Positions 17,231 through 54,192 of a stretch of 64,000 bases of DNA are shown piece by piece. The notes under the pieces are model-generated. The model saw nothing but the letters and a program-made list of their open reading frames with translations, was not told where the DNA came from and searched no databases. The position numbers and the translations under genes are program-made. Numbering within the stretch: the first letter of the stretch is position 1; each line of letters opens with the position of its first letter. Source of the stretch: Alphaproteobacteria bacterium (GTDB lineage: Bacteria; Pseudomonadota; Alphaproteobacteria; DSM-16000; Inquilinaceae); contig JANQIX010000026.1 of NCBI GenBank assembly GCA_028281925.1, forward strand, positions 62,001-126,000, in the 5' to 3' direction.

Positions 17231-17473
17231 CTGCGGGCGCAGCCTTGCCGACACGACGGCCATCGTCTTGCTGCGACGGTTCCGGGTCTGCCAGACGGGA
17301 AGCCATGACGCAACGAGACCCGCGTGCGCCCAGCCTTCATAGCGCAGCTCCATCCGGACAATAGCATCAACGATTGCAGCGACCTGATTCCCGTCGAGGA
17401 CGGCAAGACTGGGCTTGTTCAGATCCAGCAGCGCATGAACGCCGCGGGATCGGCGCATTTGCAGGCTAGGAGG

Positions 17474-18346
17474 ATGGTGTCGGCGAGTAAGGCGAACACA
17501 GCCATGGGCATCACCGCGATCCGAACGGCCTGGCGTCTACTGCCCAGAGGTCTGGTCGCAATGACCATTCCCTGTGCTCTCTTGCTGTTCTGGTCGTTCC
17601 TCGGGCGCCCGCTGCTCATGGAGGGCGGCCAGCCGCTCCTCTTCCAGTATCCACAGACCGCGGGGCTGACCTGGGCGGCTCTTGAGTCCGCTGTCTATCT
17701 CGCAGCGGAGGCCCTCTTCGTCGGCCATGTATTCTACTGGTTGCTGACCGCAACCGTTCCACCGATGCGCCAAGCGTGGAGGCCACCGCGACCGGCGATC
17801 CTGTTCGCCGTGGCGATGGTACCGGTCGGCTTCATTGTGGCGTTCATGCTGAAGGCTGCAGAGGCCGGGGCGCTGGGGCTGCTGATTGACGCCGTCGAGG
17901 TCGGACCGGACGGCAATCTCAATCCGTGGACCCGCCTCATCTGGACAGTTGCCACGTCAACCTACTGGGTCTGGCCGTTGGCCGGACTCGCAGCGCCGAT
18001 CTTGGCCCATTGGCAGTTTGCCAATGTGGCACCCCTGCGCCCCGTTCCAGCGAGGGCGTATCTTCCACTGTTCGGCTTTCTGGTTGGGCTGACAGTGGTC
18101 ACCACTCTGGTTCAACTTGGCATCGAGACGGCAATGACCAGAATGTTCGATGCGAACGTGGAGATGGGTGGCCCTATCTCGATCCTGACATGGCACATCC
18201 TGGTGGTGGTCGAAGAACTGCTCGCATTCGCATTCGCCGCAATTCTGCTGCTCATGCCACTGGGCGCCGCGATGTGCGTTCTGATGCACAGGGATGGGGC
18301 GTCCGATGAAACCATACGATCTGCAGCGAACGGGCTAGACGGTTGA
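17474..18346 (+). CDS. Polytopic membrane protein of unknown function
   Basis: About 290 residues with roughly six hydrophobic helices (for example LVAMTIPCALLLFWSFL, AILFAVAMVPVGFIVAFML, YLPLFGFLVGLTVVTTLV and LLAFAFAAILLLMPLGAAM). I recognise no family. The start is uncertain: AGGAGG lies immediately before ATG 17474 and GTG 17477, and ATG 17504 is also in frame; an open frame extends further upstream to 17324. It precedes the urea importer on the same strand but is separated by 296 bp holding the predicted urtA promoter, so it is probably not part of that operon. Confidence 0.6.
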   Translation: MVSASKANTAMGITAIRTAWRLLPRGLVAMTIPCALLLFWSFLGRPLLMEGGQPLLFQYPQTAGLTWAALESAVYLAAEALFVGHVFYWLLTATVPPMRQAWRPPRPAILFAVAMVPVGFIVAFMLKAAEAGALGLLIDAVEVGPDGNLNPWTRLIWTVATSTYWVWPLAGLAAPILAHWQFANVAPLRPVPARAYLPLFGFLVGLTVVTTLVQLGIETAMTRMFDANVEMGGPISILTWHILVVVEELLAFAFAAILLLMPLGAAMCVLMHRDGASDETIRSAANGLDG

Positions 18347-18453
18347 CTACCATGGGCCGTCGCTGTGGCGCATTGGAGCTGCCGCCTATTTTGTGAGCAA
18401 CTCCACCGCACCGCACAACAATCGAGCAGAATTGGCCCAAGTTTGAGGCAGAT

Positions 18454-18472
18454 CGTTTCCCAAACGGGAACG
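18454..18472. promoter_or_regulatory. Near-palindrome upstream of urtA
   Basis: CGTTTCCC and GGGAACG flank four bases (AAAC) in the long leader before urtA. It lies about 130 bases before the predicted sigma-54 start point, so it may be an activator site, but it matches no consensus I can name. Confidence 0.25.
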
Positions 18473-18498
18473 CTGATGCGGCTGAGGTGGCTTTCCAG

Positions 18499-18513
18499 TG
18501 CTGCATTGCAGCA
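18499..18513. promoter_or_regulatory. Perfect palindrome, candidate NtrC-type enhancer site
   Basis: TGCTGCATTGCAGCA is a perfect seven-base inverted repeat around one base. Its centre is about 85-90 bases before the transcription start predicted from the -24/-12 element, the usual place for enhancer-binding proteins. It shares the TGC...GCA ends of NtrC sites but is shorter than the classic 17-mer. Confidence 0.4.
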
Positions 18514-18565
18514 AAAGCGGCACGATTCCGGCTGACTCCGCCGTCAGGATCCCGTTCCGGGATTC

Positions 18566-18582
18566 TTGGCACGGCCCTTGCC
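18566..18582 (+). promoter_or_regulatory. Sigma-54 type -24/-12 promoter of the urea operon
   Basis: TTGGCACGGCCCTTGCC matches TGGCAC-N5-TTGC with GG at 18568-18569 and GC at 18580-18581, exactly ten bases apart. The expected start point is near 18593, about 50 bases before the urtA ATG. A perfect palindrome lies upstream. This predicts RpoN- and NtrC-dependent, nitrogen-responsive expression of urt and ure genes. Confidence 0.65.
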
Positions 18583-18642
18583 TTGCCTGTTGGTGCGCAC
18601 GCACCCGCGTGGGCGTCCGCTACGAAAAACAGGAGGCGTTCG

Positions 18643-19935
18643 ATGGATCTGTTCGATCGCATCACCCGGTTGGGGGCCGCCGCGGCCCTTGCAGGCAGTG
18701 TTGCCCTTGGCTCGGCCGCTGCGACCGCGCAGGAAGGCGATCCGATCCGGGTCGGGATCTTGCATTCCCTTTCCGGAACCATGGCGATCAGCGAGACGAC
18801 GTTGAAAGACGTCATGCTGATGCTGATCGAGGAGCAGAATGAAGCCGGCGGTCTGTTGGGCCGTCCGCTGGAAGCCGTTGTAGTCGATCCCGCATCCGAC
18901 TGGCCGCTGTTCGCCGAAAAGGCGCGCGAGCTGATCGAGCAGGAAGAGGTCGACGTGGTATTCGGCTGCTGGACCTCGGTCTCCCGCAAGTCCGTTCTGC
19001 CGGTGTTCGAAGAGCTGAACGGCCTCTTGTTCTATCCGGTGCAGTACGAGGGCGAAGAGTCTTCCCGCAACGTCTTCTACACCGGGGCTGCGCCGAACCA
19101 GCAGGCGATCCCGGCCGTGGAATACCTGATGAGCGACGAAGGCGGCGGCGCGGAGCGCTGGGTGCTGCTGGGCACCGACTATGTCTATCCGCGCACGACT
19201 AACCGCATCCTGCGGGCCTTCCTGAACGCCAATGGCGTCAGCGACGACGACATCATGGAAACCTATACGCCGTTCGGTCATTCCGACTGGCAGACCATCG
19301 TCGCCGAAGTGCAGGAATTCGCCTCGCAGGGCCTGCCGACGGCCGTGGTGTCGACCATCAACGGCGATGCAAACGTGCCGTTCTATAAAGAACTGGCGAA
19401 CCAGGGCATCTCCGCCGAAGACATCCCGGTCGTCGCGTTCTCAGTCGGAGAAGAGGAACTGGCCGGCCTCGATACCGAGCCGCTGGTCGGTCACTTGGCC
19501 GCCTGGAACTACTTCATGTCGGTCGACACGCCGGAGAACGAGGCGTTCATTGCCGGCTGGCACGACTTCATCGGCGACGATGCCCGCGTCACCAACGATC
19601 CCATGGAGGCCCACTATATCGGCTTCAACATGTGGGTTCAGGCGGTCGAGCAGGCCGGTTCCACCGAGGTCGACGCCGTGCGCCAAGCCATGTATGGCCA
19701 GACGGTGCCGAACCTGACGGGCGGCGTCGCGGTGATGAACACCAACCATCACCTGTCCAAGCCGGTGCTGATCGGCGAAATCCTCGAAGATGGGCAGTTC
19801 GACGTGGTCTGGGAAACCGATGACGTCGTCGTCGGCGACGCCTGGAGCGACTTCATCCCCGAAAGCTCCGTGCTGACGGCCGACTGGACCTATCCCTGGG
19901 TCTGCGGCAACTGCGAAACTCCGCGGTTCCAGTAA
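18643..19935 (+). CDS. urtA: Urea ABC transporter substrate-binding protein UrtA
   Basis: 430 residues. Signal peptide at about 1-30 (AAALAGSVALGSAAATAQ), then the type-I periplasmic binding fold of the amide-urea-binding branch. Characteristic stretches: VGILHSLSGTMAISE, VFGCWTSVSRKSVLPVFEE, LLFYPVQYEGEESSRNVFY, GTDYVYPRTTN and the C-terminal WTYPWVCGNC. It binds urea in the periplasm and delivers it to UrtBC. The ATG at 18643 follows AGGAGG by six bases and begins directly before the signal peptide; upstream in-frame ATGs are rejected. First gene of the operon, behind a sigma-54 promoter. Confidence 0.96.
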   Translation: MDLFDRITRLGAAAALAGSVALGSAAATAQEGDPIRVGILHSLSGTMAISETTLKDVMLMLIEEQNEAGGLLGRPLEAVVVDPASDWPLFAEKARELIEQEEVDVVFGCWTSVSRKSVLPVFEELNGLLFYPVQYEGEESSRNVFYTGAAPNQQAIPAVEYLMSDEGGGAERWVLLGTDYVYPRTTNRILRAFLNANGVSDDDIMETYTPFGHSDWQTIVAEVQEFASQGLPTAVVSTINGDANVPFYKELANQGISAEDIPVVAFSVGEEELAGLDTEPLVGHLAAWNYFMSVDTPENEAFIAGWHDFIGDDARVTNDPMEAHYIGFNMWVQAVEQAGSTEVDAVRQAMYGQTVPNLTGGVAVMNTNHHLSKPVLIGEILEDGQFDVVWETDDVVVGDAWSDFIPESSVLTADWTYPWVCGNCETPRFQ

Positions 19936-20016
19936 TCCCCGTTCGGATGCCCGGTGCGCCACCCGTCGGCGCACCGGGCGCCGGCAATCCAGATCGATAC
20001 CGGTAAGGGGTCTTTG

Positions 20017-21675
20017 ATGCCCATTCGGGTGAACCGTGCACTGGTGTTGGCGTTCGCGCTCGCCCTGGTCCTGGGCGTCCTCGCCGCACCGTCACGGAGC
20101 CTTGCCCAGGAGGCGGAGTTCGCTGAGCTGGTGGCCACGCTGGCGACCGGCGATTTCGCTGAGAAGACGGCGGCCATCGCCGCGCTCACGGCCACCGGCG
20201 ACCCCAGGGTCCAACCGATGCTGGAGGCGATGGCGGACCGCAGGCTCTACTTGCGCGAAGAAGACGGGCTGGTGGCCATCGGCGAAGACGACGCCGAGGG
20301 CCTGCGCCTGATCGACGTGCTGACCGGGGAAGAGGCCGGCATCGTCGGATCCCGCGACGTCGACCGCATCCGCGCCAACAACCGCATGCGCGGTATCATC
20401 CGCTCCGCCCTCGGCACCATGACCTTGATGAACCCCGACGCGGCCGTACGGCTTGAGGCCGCCGAGACAGTGTTCCGCAGCCAGGACGAAGGCGCCCTGG
20501 ACGCATTGGAACAGGCGTTGGCGGCAGAAGCCGACGATGCGGTCCGCGCGGCCATGGAAAAAGCCCGCGCGGCGATCCTGCTCGGCAGCGAAGATGCGGT
20601 GCTGCGGCTGGAGGCGGTTGAGGCTCTGAGCAGCTTCACCGACCCTGACATCCGCAGCATGCTGGCCGCCCTGCTGGTGCAGGACCAGGACGGCACCTTC
20701 GCAGAGACCGACGAAGCCGTTCGCGCCGCAGCGACAGAGGCCCTGGACGCCATCGAGCAGCGGCTGGCCCTGTGGCGCACCGCCGGGCACATCTATCAGG
20801 GCATCAGCCTGGGCTCCGTCCTTCTTCTCGCGGCGATCGGGCTCGCCATCACCTTCGGCGTGATGGGCGTGATCAACATGGCCCATGGCGAGATGGTGAT
20901 GCTGGGCGCGTACACGACCTTCGTGGTCCAGCAGCTCTTCCGCGACTACATGCCAGGCCTGTTCGACTTCTCGCTGTTCGTGGCCATCCCGGCCGCGTTT
21001 CTGGTGGCGGGCGCGGCCGGTGTGGCGATCGAACGCGGGATCATTCGCTTCCTCTACGGCCGGCCACTTGAGACGTTGCTGGCGACCTGGGGCCTCAGCC
21101 TGATCCTGCAGCAGCTGGTGCGTACCGTGTTCGGACCGACCAACCGTGAGGTCGGAGCGCCGTCGTGGATGCAGGGCGCGATCGAGACCACGGCCGGCAT
21201 CACGCTGACCTACAATCGCCTCTACATCATCCTCTTCTGCCTGATTGTCTTCGCCGGCCTGATTATGGTGTTGAGGCGCACGCCGCTGGGCCTGCAGATG
21301 CGCGCGGTCACGCAGAACCGGCAGATGGCAAAGGCCATGGGCATCCGCACCGGCCGGGTCGACGCGCTGACCTTCGGCCTCGGCTCCGGCATCGCCGGCA
21401 TGGCCGGCGTGGCGCTCAGCCAAATCGACAATGTCAGTCCCAATCTCGGCCAGTCCTACATCATCGACAGCTTCCTGGTCGTCGTCTTTGGCGGCGTCGG
21501 CAATCTCTGGGGCACGCTGGCAGGCGCCTTCTCGCTCGGCATCGCCAACAAGCTGCTGGAACCTTATGCCGGCGCGGTGCTGGGCAAGATCCTGGTGCTG
21601 GTCGCCATCATCCTATTCATCCAGAAACGGCCGCGGGGGCTGTTTGCCCTGAAGGGCCGGGCGGTGGAGGCATGA
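20017..21675 (+). CDS. urtB: Urea ABC transporter permease UrtB
   Basis: 552 residues. Signal-like helix at 1-30, then a roughly 220-residue helical periplasmic extension with HEAT-like repeats (EDAVLRLEAVEALSSF), then a LivH-type permease domain with eight or so helices: GLAITFGVMGVINMAHGEM, WGLSLILQQLVRTVFGPTN and VVVFGGVGNLWGTLAGAF. This long N-terminal extension is normal for UrtB and separates it from LivH. ATG 20017 follows AAGGGG. Its stop overlaps urtC by ATGA, implying coupled translation. Inner-membrane channel half for urea. Confidence 0.95.
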   Translation: MPIRVNRALVLAFALALVLGVLAAPSRSLAQEAEFAELVATLATGDFAEKTAAIAALTATGDPRVQPMLEAMADRRLYLREEDGLVAIGEDDAEGLRLIDVLTGEEAGIVGSRDVDRIRANNRMRGIIRSALGTMTLMNPDAAVRLEAAETVFRSQDEGALDALEQALAAEADDAVRAAMEKARAAILLGSEDAVLRLEAVEALSSFTDPDIRSMLAALLVQDQDGTFAETDEAVRAAATEALDAIEQRLALWRTAGHIYQGISLGSVLLLAAIGLAITFGVMGVINMAHGEMVMLGAYTTFVVQQLFRDYMPGLFDFSLFVAIPAAFLVAGAAGVAIERGIIRFLYGRPLETLLATWGLSLILQQLVRTVFGPTNREVGAPSWMQGAIETTAGITLTYNRLYIILFCLIVFAGLIMVLRRTPLGLQMRAVTQNRQMAKAMGIRTGRVDALTFGLGSGIAGMAGVALSQIDNVSPNLGQSYIIDSFLVVVFGGVGNLWGTLAGAFSLGIANKLLEPYAGAVLGKILVLVAIILFIQKRPRGLFALKGRAVEA

Positions 21676-22856
21676 GCATGACCGCCGCCAGCCGCCCGTC
21701 AGGCTACGTGCCGCTGCTGATGCGCCTGGACCGCGGCGGCATGGTGCTGCTCTCCGTCCTGGCGGCGGCTGCGATCGCCGTGCCGGCGCTGAACCTGCTG
21801 ATGCCACCAGACTCGCCGTTTCACGTGCCCACCTACCTGGTCAGCCTCTGGGGCAAGTATCTTTGCTTTGCCCTGCTGGCCGTCAGCGTCGACCTGGTGT
21901 GGGGCTATTGCGGCATTCTCAGCCTCGGTCACGGCGCCTTCTTCGCGCTCGGCGGCTATGCCATGGGCATGCACCTGATGCGCCAGATCGGCGATCGCGG
22001 CGTCTATGGCGACCCGATCCTGCCCGACTTCATGGTGTTCCTCGATTGGGACCAGCTGCCCTGGTACTGGCACGGCTTCGACAGCTTCGCGTTTGCCGCG
22101 CTGATGGTGCTGCTGGTGCCAGGCACGCTTGCCTTCGTCTTCGGCTGGCTTGCCTTCCGCAGTCGCGTCACGGGCGTCTATTTCTCCATCATCTCTCAGG
22201 CCATGACCTATGCCCTGTTGCTGGCCTTCTTCCGCAACGACATGGGCTTCGGCGGCAACAACGGTCTGACGGACTTCAAGGACATCCTGGGCTTCGACCT
22301 GCAGGCCGACGGCACCCGCGCCGCCCTGTTCGTGGCCAGCGCAATTGCGCTCGCCGGCGGCTATCTGATCTGCCGGCTGATGGTGACGTCGAAGTTCGGG
22401 CGCGTGTTGATGGCGATCCGTGACGGTGAGAGCCGCACGCGCTTCCTCGGCTATCGCGTGGAGATGTACAAGCTTCTGGTCTGGACCGTCTCTGCCATGA
22501 TGGCGGGCGTCGCAGGCGCGCTCTACGTCCCCCAGGTCGGCATCATCAACCCCGGGGAGTTCTCGCCGGCCAACTCCATCGAAATCATCGTGTGGGTCGC
22601 CGTCGGCGGCCGCGGCACGCTCTATGGTGCGGCCCTGGGCGGCGTTCTGGTGAACTATGGCAAGACCTATTTCACTGGCGCCGCGCCGGAAATCTGGCTC
22701 TTCCTGCTCGGTGGCCTGTTCATCGCCGTGACGCTGCTGCTACCCAAGGGCATCGTCGGCACCCTGTCCCAATGGTGGCAGGGACGACGCGGCTTCGGGC
22801 TGCGAAAGCGCGCTCGCCCTGCGGTTCCCGCATCCGAAGGGGGAGCCGCGGAATGA
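21672..22856 (+). CDS. urtC: Urea ABC transporter permease UrtC
   Basis: 394 residues, LivM-type permease. About ten helices; signature parts are LVWGYCGILSLGHGAFFALG (about 75-94), GVYFSIISQAMTYALLLAFF, NNGLTDFKDILGFDL and WVAVGGRGTLYGAALGGVLV. The ATG overlaps the urtB stop (ATGA), and its own stop overlaps the urtD start the same way. It pairs with UrtB as the membrane part of the high-affinity urea importer. Confidence 0.95.
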   Translation: MSMTAASRPSGYVPLLMRLDRGGMVLLSVLAAAAIAVPALNLLMPPDSPFHVPTYLVSLWGKYLCFALLAVSVDLVWGYCGILSLGHGAFFALGGYAMGMHLMRQIGDRGVYGDPILPDFMVFLDWDQLPWYWHGFDSFAFAALMVLLVPGTLAFVFGWLAFRSRVTGVYFSIISQAMTYALLLAFFRNDMGFGGNNGLTDFKDILGFDLQADGTRAALFVASAIALAGGYLICRLMVTSKFGRVLMAIRDGESRTRFLGYRVEMYKLLVWTVSAMMAGVAGALYVPQVGIINPGEFSPANSIEIIVWVAVGGRGTLYGAALGGVLVNYGKTYFTGAAPEIWLFLLGGLFIAVTLLLPKGIVGTLSQWWQGRRGFGLRKRARPAVPASEGGAAE

Positions 22857-23626
22857 ATGTCGGCCTGCCCGAAGCGATCGCCGCGGAACAGGGCATCGTC
22901 CTATACGTCGACGGCGTAACGGTCAGCTTCGACGGCTTCAAGGCGCTGAACAACCTCAGCTACACGGTCAGGACCGGCGAGATGTATGCCGTGATCGGCC
23001 CAAATGGGGCCGGCAAGACGACGATGATGGACGTCGTCACCGGCAAGACGCGCCCCGATAGCGGTCAAGTCTACTTCAAGCAGGTCCACGACCTGACGCG
23101 CCTGGACGAAGCCGCCATTGCCAATCTTGGCATCGGCCGGAAGTTCCAGAAGCCGACCGTGTTCGAGAACCATACGGTCATGGAGAACCTGGAACTGGCC
23201 TTGAAGTCCAAACGGGGGCCATTCGCCAGCCTGTTCTTCCGCCTCACGCCGGAACGCGCCGACCGCATCGACGAGGTTCTGACGACCATCGGCCTGACCG
23301 GCCAGCGCCAGGCCATGGCCGGCACGCTCTCGCACGGCCAGAAGCAGTGGCTGGAGATCGGCATGCTGCTGATCCAGGAACCGGAGCTGCTGTTCCTGGA
23401 CGAACCCGTTGCCGGCATGACCGACGCTGAGACGGAGCAGACATCGGAGCTCCTGCGCCAGATCGCCGGCAAGCATTCCGTCGTCGTCGTGGAACACGAC
23501 ATGGCCTTCGTGCGCGCACTGGACGTCAAGGTGACGGTGCTGCACGAGGGCTCCGTTCTGGCAGAAGGAAGCCTCGATCATGTGCAGAACGACGAGAAGG
23601 TGATCGAGGTGTATTTGGGCCGCTAA
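22853..23626 (+). CDS. urtD: Urea ABC transporter ATPase UrtD
   Basis: 257 residues, LivG-like ATPase. Walker A GPNGAGKTT (about 47-55), Q-loop region IGRKFQKPTVFENHTVMENL, ABC signature variant LSHGQKQWLEIGMLL (as in UrtD, where SHGQ replaces SGGQ), Walker B LLFLDEPVAGM and H-loop VVEHDMAFVR. The ATGA overlap with urtC and three-base gap to urtE show tight operon packing. Cytoplasmic motor of urea import. Confidence 0.95.
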   Translation: MNVGLPEAIAAEQGIVLYVDGVTVSFDGFKALNNLSYTVRTGEMYAVIGPNGAGKTTMMDVVTGKTRPDSGQVYFKQVHDLTRLDEAAIANLGIGRKFQKPTVFENHTVMENLELALKSKRGPFASLFFRLTPERADRIDEVLTTIGLTGQRQAMAGTLSHGQKQWLEIGMLLIQEPELLFLDEPVAGMTDAETEQTSELLRQIAGKHSVVVVEHDMAFVRALDVKVTVLHEGSVLAEGSLDHVQNDEKVIEVYLGR

Positions 23627-23629
23627 GCA

Positions 23630-24325
23630 ATGCTGCGTGTGGACGACATCCATCTCTACTACGGCGCCAGCCATGCGCTCCGCGGTGTCGGCATCGAGGC
23701 GCGGGCCGGAGCCGTGACCTGCGTTCTGGGCCGCAACGGCGTCGGCAAGACAAGCCTGTTGAAGGCGATCCTGGGTCTGCAGCCGATCCGCGGTGGTGCC
23801 ATCGCGTTGGACGGTACAGACATCACGCACATGCCGACCCATGCTCGGGCCGCGAGGGGCATCGCCTATGTCCCACAAGGGCGGGAGATCTTTCCGCTGC
23901 TGACCGTGGAAGAGAACCTGAAGACGGGCTTTGCCGCCCTGCCCCGTGCGGCCCGATCGCTGCCGGAAGAGATCTTCGAGCTGTTTCCCGTACTGAAGAA
24001 GATGCTTAGACGGCGTGGTGGCGACCTGTCGGGCGGTCAGCAGCAGCAGCTTGCGATCGCCCGGGCACTGGTCACGCGCCCGCGTCTGCTGATCCTGGAC
24101 GAGCCAACGGAGGGCATTCAGCCCTCCATCATCAAGGAGATCGAGCAGGTAATCCGCCATCTGGTCGCAAAGGGCGAAATGGCGATGCTGCTGGTGGAGC
24201 AGTATTTCGAGTTTGCACGCGATCTCGCCGATACCTATGCCGTTATGGACCGCGGCGAGGTTGTCCTGGCCGGCGCGCGCGAGACGATGCAGGAGGCCGA
24301 GGTGCGCCGGCACCTGACCGTGTGA
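23630..24325 (+). CDS. urtE: Urea ABC transporter ATPase UrtE
   Basis: 231 residues, LivF-like ATPase. Walker A LGRNGVGKTS (about 34-43), signature LSGGQQQQLAIARAL, Walker B LLILDEPTEGIQPSII and H-loop LVEQYFEFA. Starts three bases after urtD; its stop overlaps a GTG in frame with ureD, so importer and urease genes form one transcription unit. Confidence 0.95.
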   Translation: MLRVDDIHLYYGASHALRGVGIEARAGAVTCVLGRNGVGKTSLLKAILGLQPIRGGAIALDGTDITHMPTHARAARGIAYVPQGREIFPLLTVEENLKTGFAALPRAARSLPEEIFELFPVLKKMLRRRGGDLSGGQQQQLAIARALVTRPRLLILDEPTEGIQPSIIKEIEQVIRHLVAKGEMAMLLVEQYFEFARDLADTYAVMDRGEVVLAGARETMQEAEVRRHLTV

Positions 24326-24327
24326 CC

Positions 24328-25224
24328 ATGGATGGCACCCTGGCCAATCGATTGCGGAGCGCATCCGCACCGCCCGCTGCGGCCAATGACGGGCCGATCG
24401 GCAGGGCCGAAGGTGCGATTGAACTGATCGTCGACCGCCGGGACGAGCGCGCGCGGGTTCAGCACCTTTACCAGCGCCAGCCATTGCGCGTGCTGCTGCC
24501 AAAGCCGGCCGCCGGCGAACCGCTTACGGCCGTACTGGCCAATCTGTCCGGCGGCATGGTCGGCGGGGACATCCACGAAGTGTCGGTGGTCGTAGAGGGC
24601 GGCGGCGACGCGCTGGTGTGCGGGCAGGCGGCAGAGAAGGTCTATCGATCCACCGGCGCGGAAACCCGTGTTGCCGTCGGCATGGCCGTGGAGGACAGCG
24701 CCACGCTGGAGTGGCTGCCCCAGGGCACGATCCTTTTCGACGGCGCCCGCCTCAATCGGCGAACAACGGTCGACGTCGCTGCCGGCGGGCGTCTGCTGGC
24801 CGGTGAAGTGTTGGTGTTCGGCCGTCTTGGCATGGGCGAGGTCATGCGCTCAGGCCTGCTGCGCGATCATTGGCGCCTCACCGTCGATCGCCGGCTGGTA
24901 TGGGCCGACGCTCTCACGTTGGACGATGACATTGGCGCAGTTCTGGACCACCCGGCCGGTCTGGGTGGTGGCCGTGCGCTGGCGACGGTCGTTCACGCCG
25001 CACCGTCGGCGGACACCTGGCTGGAACCGGCACGCGCGATCTTGACGGAAACGGGCGGCGCCGACCTGCGGTCGGCCGCCACGGCTTGGCCGGGGGTCCT
25101 GCTGATCCGGATGCTTGGGTCCGACCCGGCGGTCGTGCGGCGCGCATTCGGACGCTGCTGGTCATGGCTTCGCGCTGCGACACTGAGACGACCGGCGACT
25201 ATGCCGGTCCTTTGGACAATCTGA
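24328..25224 (+). CDS. ureD: Urease accessory protein UreD (UreH)
   Basis: 298 residues, the scaffold that binds apo-urease with UreF and UreG during nickel insertion. Seen: [58 protein letters not shown] (split here as the usual Q-x-A-E-K-VYRS and EWLPQ elements), and a C-terminal [13 protein letters not shown] as in UreD proteins ending with W-x-I. Start at ATG 24328, two bases after the urtE stop; GTG 24322 overlaps that stop and is an alternative. Confidence 0.93.
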
Positions 25225-25252
25225 TGCGGATGGCGATCGAGGAGAGCGGACG

Positions 25253-25555
25253 GTGAACCTGACACCGCGAGAAAAAGACAAGCTGTTGGTCGCCATGGCA
25301 GCCATGGTGGCACGGCGGCGGCTGGAACGCGGGGTGAAGCTGAACCATCCCGAAGCGGTGGCGCTGATCACCGATTTCGTCCTCGAAGGCGCCCGCGACG
25401 GCCGCAATGTGGCCGACCTGATGGCCGCCGGTGCCCAAGTGCTGACCCGCGACCAGGTGATGGACGGCATCCCCGAGATGGTGGCCGAGGTGCAGGTCGA
25501 GGCAACCTTCCCCGACGGGACCAAGCTGGTCACCGTCCACAACCCGATCCGGTGA
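25253..25555 (+). CDS. ureA: Urease gamma subunit UreA
   Basis: 100 residues, the standard length. The sequence [40 protein letters not shown] and the C-terminal [11 protein letters not shown] is almost textbook. It packs against UreC in the (UreABC)3 enzyme that hydrolyses urea to ammonia and carbamate in the cytoplasm. Separate from ureB, as in most proteobacteria, rather than fused. Confidence 0.97.
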
Positions 25556-25565
25556 GGGCACGCAC

Positions 25566-25889
25566 ATGATCCCTGGCGAAATCCTGCCGGCCGCCGGCGA
25601 CATCGTTCTGAACGAGGGACGGGAGGCCACCACGCTCACCGTCACCAATACCGGCGACCGGCCGATCCAGGTTGGTTCCCACTACCACTTCGCAGAGACC
25701 AACGTTGGTCTCGCCTTCGACCGCAAGGCCGCTCGCGGCCACCGTCTGGACATCCCCGCGGGCACAGCCATCCGGTTCGAGCCGGGACAGACGCGCGAAG
25801 TCTCGCTGGTGGCCTACGCTGGCGCGTGCCGCGTCTACGGCTTTAATGGCGCCGTAATGGGCGCCCTCGACGCCGACGGGAAGGAGTAA
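25566..25889 (+). CDS. ureB: Urease beta subunit UreB
   Basis: 107 residues. [20 protein letters not shown], the strongly conserved [17 protein letters not shown] (about 37-53), [19 protein letters not shown] and [13 protein letters not shown] identify it. Structural subunit that helps open the active-site flap region to UreD/F/G during maturation. Ten bases downstream of ureA and six before ureC. Confidence 0.97.
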
Positions 25890-25895
25890 CGCCAC

Positions 25896-27608
<1,713 letters not shown>

Positions 27609-27620
27609 ACGGCCAAGTCC

Positions 27621-28115
27621 ATGGATGACTCCGCCCTTCTCGATCGCGCGGTTGCCGTCGCCCGGCATGGCGACTGGCCGCCGGATCAGGCGTTGGACAG
27701 CGTCACTCTTCCCTTCGACTTGCGCCACCGCCGGCGGATCCGGCTGACGACCGATCGCGGCGCCGCCGTCCTGCTCGATCTGGAGAAGGCGGCGGCACTG
27801 TCCGAGGGCGATGGGCTCAGGCTCCAGGCTGGCGGGTGGGTCGCCGTGAAGGCAGCGCCTGAGCGGGTGCTGGATGTGCGTGGCCGCGACACACGCCATC
27901 TCATGCGCCTTGCCTGGCATCTCGGCAACCGTCATCTGGCTTGCGATATCGGGAACGACCGGCTGCTGATCCGTCCCGATCCGGTCATCGCCGACATGCT
28001 GCGTGGCCTTGGCGCCGTCGTTACAGAGATCGAGGCGCCGTTTCAGCCGGAAGGTGGTGCCTATGGGGCCAGCCACGGCCATCACGCAGAGGCAGGGCAT
28101 GCTGACCAACACTGA
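27621..28115 (+). CDS. ureE: Urease nickel metallochaperone UreE
   Basis: 164 residues. N-terminal domain (LPFDLRHRRRIRLTTDRG), the middle metal-binding domain with HLMRLAWHLGNRHLACDI carrying the conserved interface histidine, and a short His-rich tail ([14 protein letters not shown]) that binds extra nickel. Delivers nickel to UreG. Its last 17 bases overlap ureF. Confidence 0.94.
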   Translation: MDDSALLDRAVAVARHGDWPPDQALDSVTLPFDLRHRRRIRLTTDRGAAVLLDLEKAAALSEGDGLRLQAGGWVAVKAAPERVLDVRGRDTRHLMRLAWHLGNRHLACDIGNDRLLIRPDPVIADMLRGLGAVVTEIEAPFQPEGGAYGASHGHHAEAGHADQH

Positions 28116-28794
28116 AGCCCTGCTGCGGCTGCAGTCCTGGCTCTCGCCGGCCTTTCCGACCGGGGCGTTCAGCTATTCCCATGGGCTGGAGACGGCGGTT
28201 GCGGACAGCCTGGTGACGGATGCCGACGGCCTGGAGGCCTGGCTTGCCGGCATCCTGCGTTATGGTGCCGGACGCTCGGACGCCTGGCTCTTGATCGACG
28301 CGTTCGAGTCCGCGCGGAACCGAAACTCGGAGCGCCTGATGGAGGCGGCGGAACTGGGGATGGCTCTTGCGGGCGCCGCGGAGCTGTCGCTGGAGGCCCG
28401 CTCGCAGGGGATGGCTTTCTTCGCGACAGTGCGGGCCGTATGGCCAGCGCCAGGGCTAGACTGGGCGGCCGACACGCTCACACGGGCCGAGCTTCCCGCC
28501 ACGCTGCCGGTCGCGACCGGGATCGCGGGTGCAGCGCATGGCATCCCGATGGAAGCGCTTGTGGCGCTCTACCTGAATGCGTTTGCCGCCAACCTGGTTT
28601 CTGCTGGCGTCCGGTTGATCCCGCTGGGGCAGACGGACGGGCAGCGCGTCACGGCTGCCCTGGAACCGGTGGTCGCGGAGGCCGCAACCCGCAGCCTGGA
28701 GCGGGAAGAGCCGGAACCGGCGAACGCCACGGTCATGGTGGACATCTGTGCCATGCTTCACGAAACCCAGTACACGCGCCTGTTCCGCTCATGA
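28099..28794 (+). CDS. ureF: Urease accessory protein UreF
   Basis: 231 residues, all-helical GTPase-regulating partner of UreG and UreD. Conserved parts: [20 protein letters not shown] (about 8-27), [20 protein letters not shown] and [16 protein letters not shown] 28099 follows AGAGGCAGGG and overlaps the ureE end; ATG 28063 is an earlier alternative. The stop overlaps the ureG start (ATGA). Confidence 0.94.
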
Positions 28795-29423
28795 CGGTGC
28801 GACCCGAGACCTCCCATGGCCCGCTCAGGGTCGGCATTGGTGGCCCGGTCGGTTCCGGCAAGACGGCGCTGGCGGAAGCGCTGTGCAAGCGCCTGCGCGA
28901 CCGTATCGACATGTTCGTCGTCACCAACGACATCTACACGAAGGAAGACCAGCAGATCCTGACGCGCGCCGGCGCGCTGCCGGCGGACCGCATCATGGGG
29001 GTGGAAACCGGCGGCTGCCCGCACACCGCGATCCGGGAAGACGCGTCGATCAATCTGGCGGCGCTGGACGAGATGCGCACGCGCTTTCCAAGCGCCGCGA
29101 TCGCCCTGATCGAAAGCGGCGGCGACAACTTGGCCGCCACGTTCAGTCCCGAGCTTGCGGATCTGACGGTCTATGTGATCGACGTGGCGGCGGGTGAGAA
29201 GATCCCCCGCAAGGGTGGCCCCGGCATCACGCGCTCGGACCTATTGGTGATCAACAAGATCGACCTGGCGCCGGCCGTCGGCGCCGACTTGGCCGTCATG
29301 GACGCGGACACGCGTCGCATGCGCGGCGACCGCCCTTACGTCTTCACCAACCTGAAAACGGGCGAGGGTCTGGACCGGGTGATCGACTTCATCGTGACAA
29401 GTGGGGGCGTTGCGCTTCGGTAA
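28791..29423 (+). CDS. ureG: Urease accessory GTPase UreG
   Basis: 210 residues, SIMIBI-class GTPase that drives nickel insertion. P-loop [11 protein letters not shown] (about 17-27), [14 protein letters not shown], the nickel-binding CPH in [30 protein letters not shown] and the guanine-binding NKIDLAP. Last gene of the operon; convergent with ispG across 103 bp that contain a hairpin. Confidence 0.97.
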
Positions 29424-53286: not shown

Positions 53287-54192
53287 ATGTCCCGCGATCA
53301 CAGTGACCGTCGCCCGACCCTCCCCTCCGCTTCGTCCGATGGCGTTCCGCCGGATGTCCTTCAGCGCCTGGCGTCCGGCGGTCCCAGCGTTGGGCGCCGG
53401 CCTTTGGGGGCGGCGGCGTTGCGCGCGCTGGCGACCATCTTTGTGTTCGCCACACCGATCCAGCCAGGCGTCGCCCAATCCCCAACGCTGCGCGGCTGCA
53501 CCCTGACGGAGGAAGAGTTCCGGGAACTCATTGGCGATGACGAAGCGACGTTCCGCAGCAGCATGGTGTTCGTCATGGACGACGGCACGCTGGTCAGCGA
53601 CACCTCCGGCGATCCTCGGCTGGACGCCGCCTTTGGACAGTTGCTGGCGGATCTTGCTACGAGAGTCCAGGTCCGTCCTGGCTTCGGCTTCTTCGACGAC
53701 AGGGGCAGCCCGAATGCGTTTGCGACGACCTACACGCTCATGCCCAACACCCAGGGCACGGTGGTCATCGGGACCACATTGATGAATGACTATTTGCGCA
53801 ACCCGGAATTCCGGCAGCATGGCGACCTACTGCTCATGGCCGTCTGCGCGCACGAGTTCGGCCACATCAAGCAGTATTTCCACCAGCCCAACCTGGGACT
53901 GTACGATCGCCTGGTCAGCATGCACCCAACGGTGAAATTCCTGGAGCTGCACGCCGACTTTCTGTCCGGCTACTATATGGGCACGCGCGGGTCCCAGTTC
54001 TCGGACGAGCAGCTGGTGGTCATCGGCCGGGGCTATGAGGCTATGGGCGACATCTACTACAACGACCCCAACCACCACGGCACCAATGCCGAGCGGATCG
54101 CCGCGATCGAGAACGGCTACCTCATGGGCTCACTGACGGGTGGGGGCATCGACGACGCTATCGAGGCCGGCCTTTACTATCTTCGCGCCTAA
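53287..54192 (+). CDS. Secreted or membrane-anchored HExxH metalloprotease-like protein
   Basis: 301 residues. ATG 53287 follows GAAGGAAGA; a hydrophobic segment (about 43-60, LGAAALRALATIFVFATP) acts as signal after an unusually long polar leader. The zinc site is HEFGH (189-193) and a likely third ligand is in ELHAD (220-224); the preceding GTVVIGTTLMNDYLR is typical of M48-like peptidases. It is far from the standard HtpX/LoiP families in the rest. Stands alone. Peptidase activity is inferred from the motif only. Confidence 0.75.
   Translation: MSRDHSDRRPTLPSASSDGVPPDVLQRLASGGPSVGRRPLGAAALRALATIFVFATPIQPGVAQSPTLRGCTLTEEEFRELIGDDEATFRSSMVFVMDDGTLVSDTSGDPRLDAAFGQLLADLATRVQVRPGFGFFDDRGSPNAFATTYTLMPNTQGTVVIGTTLMNDYLRNPEFRQHGDLLLMAVCAHEFGHIKQYFHQPNLGLYDRLVSMHPTVKFLELHADFLSGYYMGTRGSQFSDEQLVVIGRGYEAMGDIYYNDPNHHGTNAERIAAIENGYLMGSLTGGGIDDAIEAGLYYLRA

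What the first reader, a model, noticed from the sequence alone, without database searches (positions are those of the whole stretch)
18454..18642. Sigma-54 promoter with upstream palindrome controls the urea superoperon
GG-N10-GC in TTGGCACGGCCCTTGCC matches the -24/-12 consensus closely and a perfect TGCTGCA/TGCAGCA palindrome lies at enhancer distance. This predicts that all twelve urt and ure genes answer to nitrogen starvation as one unit.
Basis: partly seen in the sequence, partly recalled or inferred. Interest (0 to 1): 0.5.

Follow-up and report, generated by a model that had tools for sequence, protein, structure and literature searches.

The report
Nitrogen promoter with plastic-store control site
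The switch in front of this bacterium's urea-uptake and urea-splitting genes looks like a genuine nitrogen-starvation promoter, but the palindrome noticed beside it looks like a docking site for the sensor of the cell's carbon-storage granules, so urea use is probably tied to carbon reserves as well as to nitrogen hunger.

Summary
The -24/-12 element is real: TGGCACGGCCCTTGC, 18567-18581, 11 of 11 consensus positions. Boxes of at least 10/11 precede urtA in 37 of 80 relatives; controls 1/80 and 1/80. Twelve urt/ure genes follow with gaps of 28 bp or less.

The palindrome is real but probably misread. It does not score as an NtrC site. The same motif, in pairs, precedes ntrBC, glnBA, glnK-amtB and nifA of this genome, which points to NtrC.

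A second motif, learned from relatives' phasin promoters, has its best window hit at the palindrome: 19.2 bits, next 7.8. The palindrome fits the published consensus of PhaR, the PHB-sensing regulator. In 386 genomes, 10 of 16 sigma-54 boxes followed by a PhaR core lie directly before urtA.

Best reading: a dual-input promoter, NtrC/sigma-54 (nitrogen) plus PhaR (carbon store). Binding, start site and direction of PhaR action are untested.

The parts
18567..18581 (+). sigma-54 -24/-12 box TGGCACGGCCCTTGC
   Evidence: 11 of 11 specified positions; boxes of >=10/11 upstream of urtA in 37 of 80 relatives
18593..18593 (+). predicted transcription start (12 nt after the GC)
   Evidence: inference from the usual sigma-54 geometry (recalled); not mapped
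18383..18399 (.). NtrC-type site 1, CGCCTATTTTGTGAGCA, 13.2 bits, best in the 64-kb window
   Evidence: PWM trained without the window; 14/17 identical in the sister genome
18412..18428 (.). NtrC-type site 2, CGCACAACAATCGAGCA, 7.4 bits (6th best in window), 29 bp from site 1
   Evidence: 17/17 identical in the sister genome
18434..18450 (.). NtrC-type site 3, GGCCCAAGTTTGAGGCA, 10.9 bits (2nd best in window)
   Evidence: 15/17 identical in the sister genome
18498..18514 (.).
   Evidence: best hit of the phasin-promoter PWM in the window, next 7.8; fits the published consensus TGCRNYGCASMA (PMC6201568 passages)
18592..18605 (.). inverted repeat GGTGCGCACGCACC in the leader; possible weak second PhaR site (TGC-N4-GCA type)
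   Evidence: read by eye; speculative; not among the PWM hits
18582..18642 (+). 5' leader, 60 of 61 bases identical in the sister genome
   Evidence: no special RNA fold for 18593-18660, z 0.08
18643..24325 (+). urtA-urtB-urtC-urtD-urtE, urea ABC transporter
   Evidence: TIGR03407/03409/03408/03411/03410 over their cut-offs; urtC start 21678 or 21672
24322..29423 (+). ureD-ureA-ureB-ureC-ureE-ureF-ureG, urease and accessory proteins
   Evidence: ureF start probably 28099, ureG 28791

Best explanation
The 296-bp region 18347-18642 is a two-input promoter for the twelve-gene urt-ure operon. When nitrogen is short, phosphorylated NtrC binds a cluster of 17-bp sites at 18383-18450 and, by DNA looping, activates RNA polymerase with sigma-54 at 18567-18581, which starts near 18593. 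Between enhancer and promoter lies an operator (18498-18514) for PhaR, the regulator that is drawn off DNA when polyhydroxybutyrate (PHB) granules build up. Most likely PhaR represses, for instance by hindering the loop, so the operon is fully on only when nitrogen is short and carbon is in store. Shown here: the elements, their conservation, the presence of rpoN, ntrBC and phaR genes, and the same motifs at known-type targets. Inferred: protein binding, looping, direction of PhaR action, start site.
For: Sigma-54: 11/11 box; 37 of 80 relatives >=10/11, against 1/80 on the other strand and 1/80 in the gene; rpoN. NtrC: EM motif from 38 relatives without the window and its sister, log-likelihood 201 against 26-31 in five shuffled sets; top two of 63,984 window positions fall here; same motif in pairs before nifR3-ntrB-ntrC (28 bp apart), glnB-glnA (19 apart, with a 10/11 box), glnK-amtB (29 apart) and nifA (18 apart) (gene names); NtrC by TIGR01818 at 724 bits. 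PhaR: EM motif from 28 phasin upstreams without own or sister loci, log-likelihood 197 against 27-28 in three shuffled sets; best window hit is the palindrome at 19.2 bits; both own phasin promoters carry pairs of it; phaR gene. The sister species differs by one base in the site and still fits TGCRNYGCASMA. In 80 relatives' urtA upstreams 18 score >=8 bits (dinucleotide-shuffle expectation 4.2) and 6 score >=16 (expectation 0.2); with the sigma-54 box masked, 16 of 80 still reach 8. In 4 of the 12 that also have a box of >=9/11 the site lies upstream of the box, as in the window. Composite sigma-54 plus PhaR-core pattern in 386 genomes: 16 places, reversed control 4; 10 of the 16 directly before urtA, in 6 genera of 5 families. 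In Sinorhizobium meliloti UreA and UreB are higher in phbC phaR than in phbC (log2 0.54-0.93; PMC12542648 passages).
Against: Where relatives have both a box and a site, the commonest place is over the expected start, 5-6 nt after the box (6 of 12), not upstream (4 of 12); 2 of 12 overlap the box itself. The window does not match the composite pattern (G000 zero). Of the 12 other-genome urtA loci taken, 11 score below 5 bits for PhaR within 330 bp, all but the sister, including G004 with a 92% identical UrtA; so in this family the site is seen in one genus only. 62 of 80 named relatives have no site of 8 bits. Not all 13 palindromes of the genome sit before sensible targets. PhaR can also activate (PMC6201568 passages; PMC12849132, search listing only). 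The main text of the S. meliloti paper names no PhaR site at ure; its supplement was not seen. No binding or expression data exist for this organism in what I saw.
Confidence: 0.68

Rival explanations
1. Plain NtrC/sigma-54 promoter; the palindrome is a chance or decayed site without function.
For: The nitrogen part alone explains the box and the 18383-18450 sites. 11 of 12 other-genome loci scored lack the PhaR site. Some of the 13 genome palindromes are in odd places, such as near an integrase or a Wzy_C gene.
Against: 19.2-bit best window hit of a motif trained elsewhere; 16/17 bases kept in the sister against 63/85 in the two unassigned stretches 18451-18497 and 18528-18565; recurrence of PhaR-type sites at urtA in other families.
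Confidence: 0.2
2. PhaR binds the palindrome but acts as an activator or helper of NtrC rather than a repressor.
For: Placement about 87 bp upstream of the predicted start is unusual for a repressor. Activation by PhaR is reported for other genes (PMC6201568 passages).
Against: S. meliloti UreA/UreB are higher without PhaR (PMC12542648); start-overlapping operators in six relatives fit repression.
Confidence: 0.12
3. One reading: the palindrome is the NtrC enhancer.
For: Palindrome at enhancer distance; nitrogen-type promoter.
Against: 15 bp instead of 17 bp; -23.6 bits with the NtrC-type PWM; better NtrC-type sites nearby; matches phasin promoters instead.
Confidence: 0.04
4. Activation by NifA, since a nif cluster with nifA lies on the same contig.
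For: NifA gene at 682 bits on the same contig; nifH and nifB boxes there have NifA-type TGT-N10-ACA pairs (genes).
Against: No TGT-N10-ACA before urtA or anywhere in the window, where 5.9 are expected by chance; NtrC-type sites present.
Confidence: 0.01

Closest known systems
NtrC-controlled urease and urt genes of Proteobacteria (PMC5343134, passages read; R. capsulatus urea genes, Masepohl 2001, known to me only as cited in PMC8443478; one search found it not held)
   Same: NtrC control of urease and urea transporters, predicted for Alteromonadales, Oceanospirillales, Rhizobiales and Rhodobacterales
   Different: The passages read mention no PhaR input and name no Rhodospirillales for urea
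PhaR/AniA regulons of S. meliloti (PMC12542648) and Bradyrhizobium diazoefficiens (PMC6201568, PMC10888616), passages read
   Same: Same operator type (YGCRNYGCR; TGCRNYGCASMA), paired at phasin promoters; PHB releases PhaR; UreA/UreB levels respond in S. meliloti
   Different: No urt target is named: 'urt' as a word start has no occurrence in the three main texts; no sigma-54 promoter with a PhaR operator in the passages read
E. coli glnA promoter (recalled)
   Same: sigma-54 box with a pair of NtrC sites about three helical turns apart at 100-140 bp
   Different: No carbon-store operator; consensus TGCACC-N5-GGTGCA differs from the more A+T-rich dyad here

Membership tests
sigma-54 promoter | GG and GC ten bases apart within TGGCACG-N4-TTGC | tested here: met
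sigma-54 promoter | rpoN gene in the genome | tested here: met
   224.9 bits
sigma-54 promoter | same element before the same gene in relatives | tested here: met
   37 of 80 at >=10/11; controls 1/80 and 1/80
sigma-54 promoter | start site 12 nt downstream and RpoN dependence | not testable with these tools
   needs 5' RACE and a mutant
NtrC-activated promoter | 17-bp dyad sites upstream, shared with glnBA, glnK-amtB and ntrBC of the same genome | tested here: met
   -23.6 bits
NtrC-activated promoter | NtrC binding | not testable with these tools
   needs footprinting
NifA-activated promoter | TGT-N10-ACA upstream | tested here: not met
   none before urtA or in the window
PhaR operator | palindrome with core YGCRNYGCR / TGCRNYGCASMA | tested here: met
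   window TGCATTGCAGCA; consensus
PhaR operator | same motif at phasin promoters of the same genome, and phaR present | tested here: met
PhaR operator | conserved at the orthologous promoter | tested here: inconclusive
   sister genome yes; 11 of 12 other-genome loci no; 18 of 80 named relatives yes, at varied places; 10 composite promoters
PhaR operator | PhaR binding released by PHB | not testable with these tools
   needs gel shift with PhaR and PHB
single twelve-gene operon | co-oriented genes, short gaps, no internal promoter or terminator | tested here: met
   gaps at most 28 bp; 0 sigma-70-like sites (1.1 expected); 2 plus-strand terminator-like sites inside genes, 4 on both strands against 5.1 expected. 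Co-transcription itself not tested

The most novel reading that the evidence does not exclude
In many Alphaproteobacteria the urea operon is a direct PhaR target: a PhaR operator sits on or beside a sigma-54/NtrC promoter, so the state of the PHB store gates urea uptake and urease together with nitrogen starvation. In several families the operator overlaps the sigma-54 start; in this genus it lies between enhancer and promoter. A formamide operon of the same genome carries the operator too, suggesting a wider link between carbon store and amide nitrogen.
Probability: 0.6. Interest if true: 0.62.

Novelty: new variant of a known kind. Interest (0 to 1): 0.52.

Why it matters
Bacteria lay down PHB when carbon is plentiful and nitrogen short, and to my knowledge (recalled) direct regulatory links from the store back to nitrogen uptake are few. 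A PhaR operator on the urea promoter would be such a link, could explain the urease change seen in S. meliloti phaR mutants, and is easy to test in laboratory strains. It also corrects which DNA sites a mutagenesis of this promoter should target.

Tried and rejected
Classical NtrC consensus TGCACC-N5-GGTGCA on relatives: a few good hits, distribution close to shuffles; replaced by an unsupervised motif. NifA sites before urtA: none. RNA structure in the leader: no signal (z 0.08). A mixture-model EM on the phasin upstreams collapsed to A+T-rich sequence and was discarded; the one-site-per-sequence version gave the motif used. Reading the palindrome as a terminator: no run of T on either side by eye. 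Internal sigma-70 promoters of the operon: none found. PhaR site at nifR3-ntrBC, as listed for B. diazoefficiens nifR in PMC6201568: none of 8 bits or more here.

Limits of the counts. The NtrC-type motif was trained on 38 of 45 sequences: five near-duplicates, the window and L104 were dropped; L030 and L107 are the same sequence and both stayed in; L109 entered with a 9/11 box. The shuffled sets keep base composition only; those keep dinucleotides. Spacing counts include training sequences. Phasin training used 28 of 31 upstreams; only loci that the tool fetched were available. The composite pattern was framed after seeing six urtA examples, so it is blind to gene identity but not to their layout. 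Of its 10 urtA places four are from one genus and two from another.

Full report
WHAT WAS CHECKED. The window lies at C80:62001-126000 of a 6.33-Mb, 122-contig genome; the closest named urtA relatives are mostly Rhodospirillales and other Alphaproteobacteria. At 18567-18581 it reads TGGCACGGCCCTTGC, with GG and GC ten bases apart, and at 18499-18513 the perfect palindrome TGCTGCA-T-TGCAGCA. The box is the only exact consensus match in the window and one of 7 in the genome, against 2 for the reversed pattern. Allowing two mismatches the pattern is not above chance in the window (25 found, 30.8 expected). The sigma-54 consensus and the 12-nt rule for the start are recalled.

THE OPERON. urtA-E and ureB, C, E are identified by NCBIfam, ureD, ureA, ureF and the UreG-type nucleotide-binding domain by Pfam. 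The twelve genes run on one strand. With the starts used the gaps run from -14 to +28 bp; two of those starts were set by hand and are better placed at 21678 or 21672 (urtC) and 28099 (ureF), which changes gaps by a few bases only. No sigma-70-like site was found inside (1.1 expected), and terminator-like sites were 4 against 5.1 expected. Seven neighbour stretches were examined: in five (G001, G004, G006, G003, G012) all twelve genes keep this order, in G002 and G011 the contig ends inside the cluster. A convergent gcpE gene follows.

SIGMA-54 BOX IN RELATIVES. In up to 450 bp before urtA of 80 named loci, 37 have a box of at least 10 of 11 positions, against 1 on the opposite strand and 1 inside the gene; 34 of the 37 lie 32-72 nt before the start codon. 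The other 43, many gammaproteobacterial and a number alphaproteobacterial, lack it at that threshold. The genome has one rpoN.

NITROGEN SITES. The classical enterobacterial NtrC consensus did not stand out. An unsupervised palindromic motif search on 38 upstream sequences, without the window and its sister genome G001, gave TGCnnAAAnTTTnnGCA with log-likelihood 201 against 26-31 in five shuffled sets. Among the 63,984 positions of the window the two best hits are 18383 (13.2 bits) and 18434 (10.9 bits), and 18412 ranks sixth (7.4 bits). In 2,000 shuffles of 18347-18567 the best hit was reached in 0.2%. Among site pairs in 40 sequences 17 of 59 are 28-30 bp apart, 29 being the commonest; sites 18383 and 18412 are 29 apart. 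In the same genome the motif occurs in pairs before nifR3-ntrB-ntrC (18.6 and 20.3 bits, 28 apart), glnB-glnA (11.0 and 15.9, 19 apart, with a 10/11 sigma-54 box), glnK-amtB (16.2 and 16.0, 29 apart) and nifA (9.9 and 7.9, 18 apart). The genes were named by family searches: P-II, NtrC, NifA, DusB/NifR3, glutamine synthetase and ammonium transporter. nifH and nifB have NifA-type TGT-N10-ACA pairs instead. This distribution identifies the motif as the NtrC site with good confidence. NtrC, NtrX and NifA pass their NCBIfam cut-offs; the NtrB match, 228 bits, is just under its cut-off of 240. PMC5343134 (passages read) already predicts NtrC control of urease and urt genes in several orders, so this part is a new member of a known kind.

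THE PALINDROME. It scores -23.6 bits with the NtrC-type motif. A one-mismatch copy precedes a second urtABCDE-like operon that ends in a formamidase gene, and another precedes a phasin gene. That pointed to PhaR, whose site is CTGCNNNGCAG in R. sphaeroides and YGCRNYGCR-centred in S. meliloti (PMC12542648, passages), and TGCRNYGCASMA, deduced with footprinting, in B. diazoefficiens (PMC6201568, passages). The genome has phaR and two phasins, each phasin promoter with two such palindromes. A motif from 28 phasin upstreams of relatives, without own and sister loci, is nTGnTGCAnTGCAnCAn (log-likelihood 197 against 27-28 in three shuffled sets). Its best hit in the 64-kb window is 18498-18514 with 19.2 bits; the next is 7.8. 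The sister genome has one change there (16.5 bits) that still fits the published consensus. Conservation between the two genomes is 16/17 in this site and 60/61 in the leader, against 35/47 and 28/38 in the two unassigned stretches; third codon positions of urtA are 86% identical.

GENERALITY. In the 80 urtA upstreams 18 score at least 8 bits for PhaR (shuffle expectation 4.2) and 6 at least 16 bits (0.2); with the sigma-54 box masked 16 of 80 still reach 8. In 541 coding segments of the same length 10 reach 8, one reaches 12 and none 16. Of the 18, twelve also have a box of at least 9/11: six sites start 5-6 nt after the box, over the expected start (L027, L034, L042, and the three Mesorhizobium loci L077, L096, L100); four lie upstream of it (L035, L065, L074, L102), comparable to the window; two overlap it (L039, L044). 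The other six lack such a box; by eye L051 and L099 have TGGCACGGCGCTTGT and L037/L038 a TTGACA-like promoter. A scan of 386 genomes of the class for a sigma-54 box followed after 6-14 nt by a PhaR core found 16 places in 15 genomes (reversed control 4); 10 lie directly before urtA, one before an NMT1-like substrate-binding protein gene, five elsewhere. The window's own promoter is not among them because its operator lies upstream of the box.

MECHANISM. NtrC and sigma-54 drive the operon in nitrogen starvation. PhaR bound at 18498-18514 probably interferes until PHB granules draw it off. Which step it blocks, and whether it represses at all, is inference. In S. meliloti UreA and UreB belong to a module of proteins that rise without PhaR (log2 0.54-0.93 in phbC phaR over phbC), an independent hint; no site at ure appears in the passages and tables of the main text that I saw, and the supplement was not seen.

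RESULTS AGAINST. Of 12 other-genome urtA loci, 11 lack the PhaR site, even G004 with a 92% identical UrtA. The commonest place of the operator in other families differs from that in the window. Several of the 13 palindromes of the genome lie near unrelated genes. glnB-glnA and ntrBC have no PhaR site of 8 bits or more; glnK-amtB has a weak one of 10.0.

LITERATURE. Searches for PhaR with urtA (one genome paper, not read), PhaR with urea and NtrC, PhaR with regulon, phasin and urea terms, AniA with urea, PhaR with polyhydroxybutyrate and urease, and PhaR with sigma54 and NtrC showed no title or abstract start that reports a PhaR operator at a urea promoter. Only open-licence papers are held, most listings were cut at 8-15 entries, and I read passages, not whole texts, so this is not proof of absence.

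Noticed in passing
outside the window, G000 C61:222000-231500 (L157): A second urtABCDE-like operon ending in an FmdA-type formamidase gene; a 22.4-bit PhaR-type site lies before it, and before the same urtA-like gene in the sister genome (L130).
   Followed up: partly
outside the window, C80 about 22.7-34 kb (L006, L143, L144, L009): nifH, nifB and nifA with sigma-54 boxes; nifH and nifB have NifA-type sites, nifA has NtrC-type sites, i.e. the classical NtrC to NifA cascade, roughly 50 kb from the urea operon.
   Followed up: partly
18582-18642: Leader of urtA almost unchanged between two species (60/61) though nearby unassigned stretches differ by about 25%; contains the inverted repeat GGTGCGCACGCACC; no unusual RNA fold.
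   Followed up: partly
53967-53983: Third-best NtrC-type hit of the window (9.5 bits); its context was not examined.
   Followed up: no
17324-18346: Open frame of 340 aa upstream of the promoter, no NCBIfam or Pfam match at E 0.001; 80% identical in the sister genome.
   Followed up: no
window, whole: TGT-N10-ACA does not occur at all in 64 kb although about 6 are expected.
   Followed up: no
L037, L038: Two urtA relatives seem to have a TTGACA-type promoter instead of the sigma-54 box but carry a 23-bit PhaR-type site just before the gene.
   Followed up: no
L209 (G315): Composite sigma-54 box plus PhaR core before an NMT1-like substrate-binding protein (nitrate-transporter type by eye), hinting that another nitrogen uptake system may share the carbon-store input.
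   Followed up: partly
L221 (G000 C17, about 40.66 kb): Two PhaR-type sites 32 bp apart near a phage-type integrase gene.
   Followed up: no
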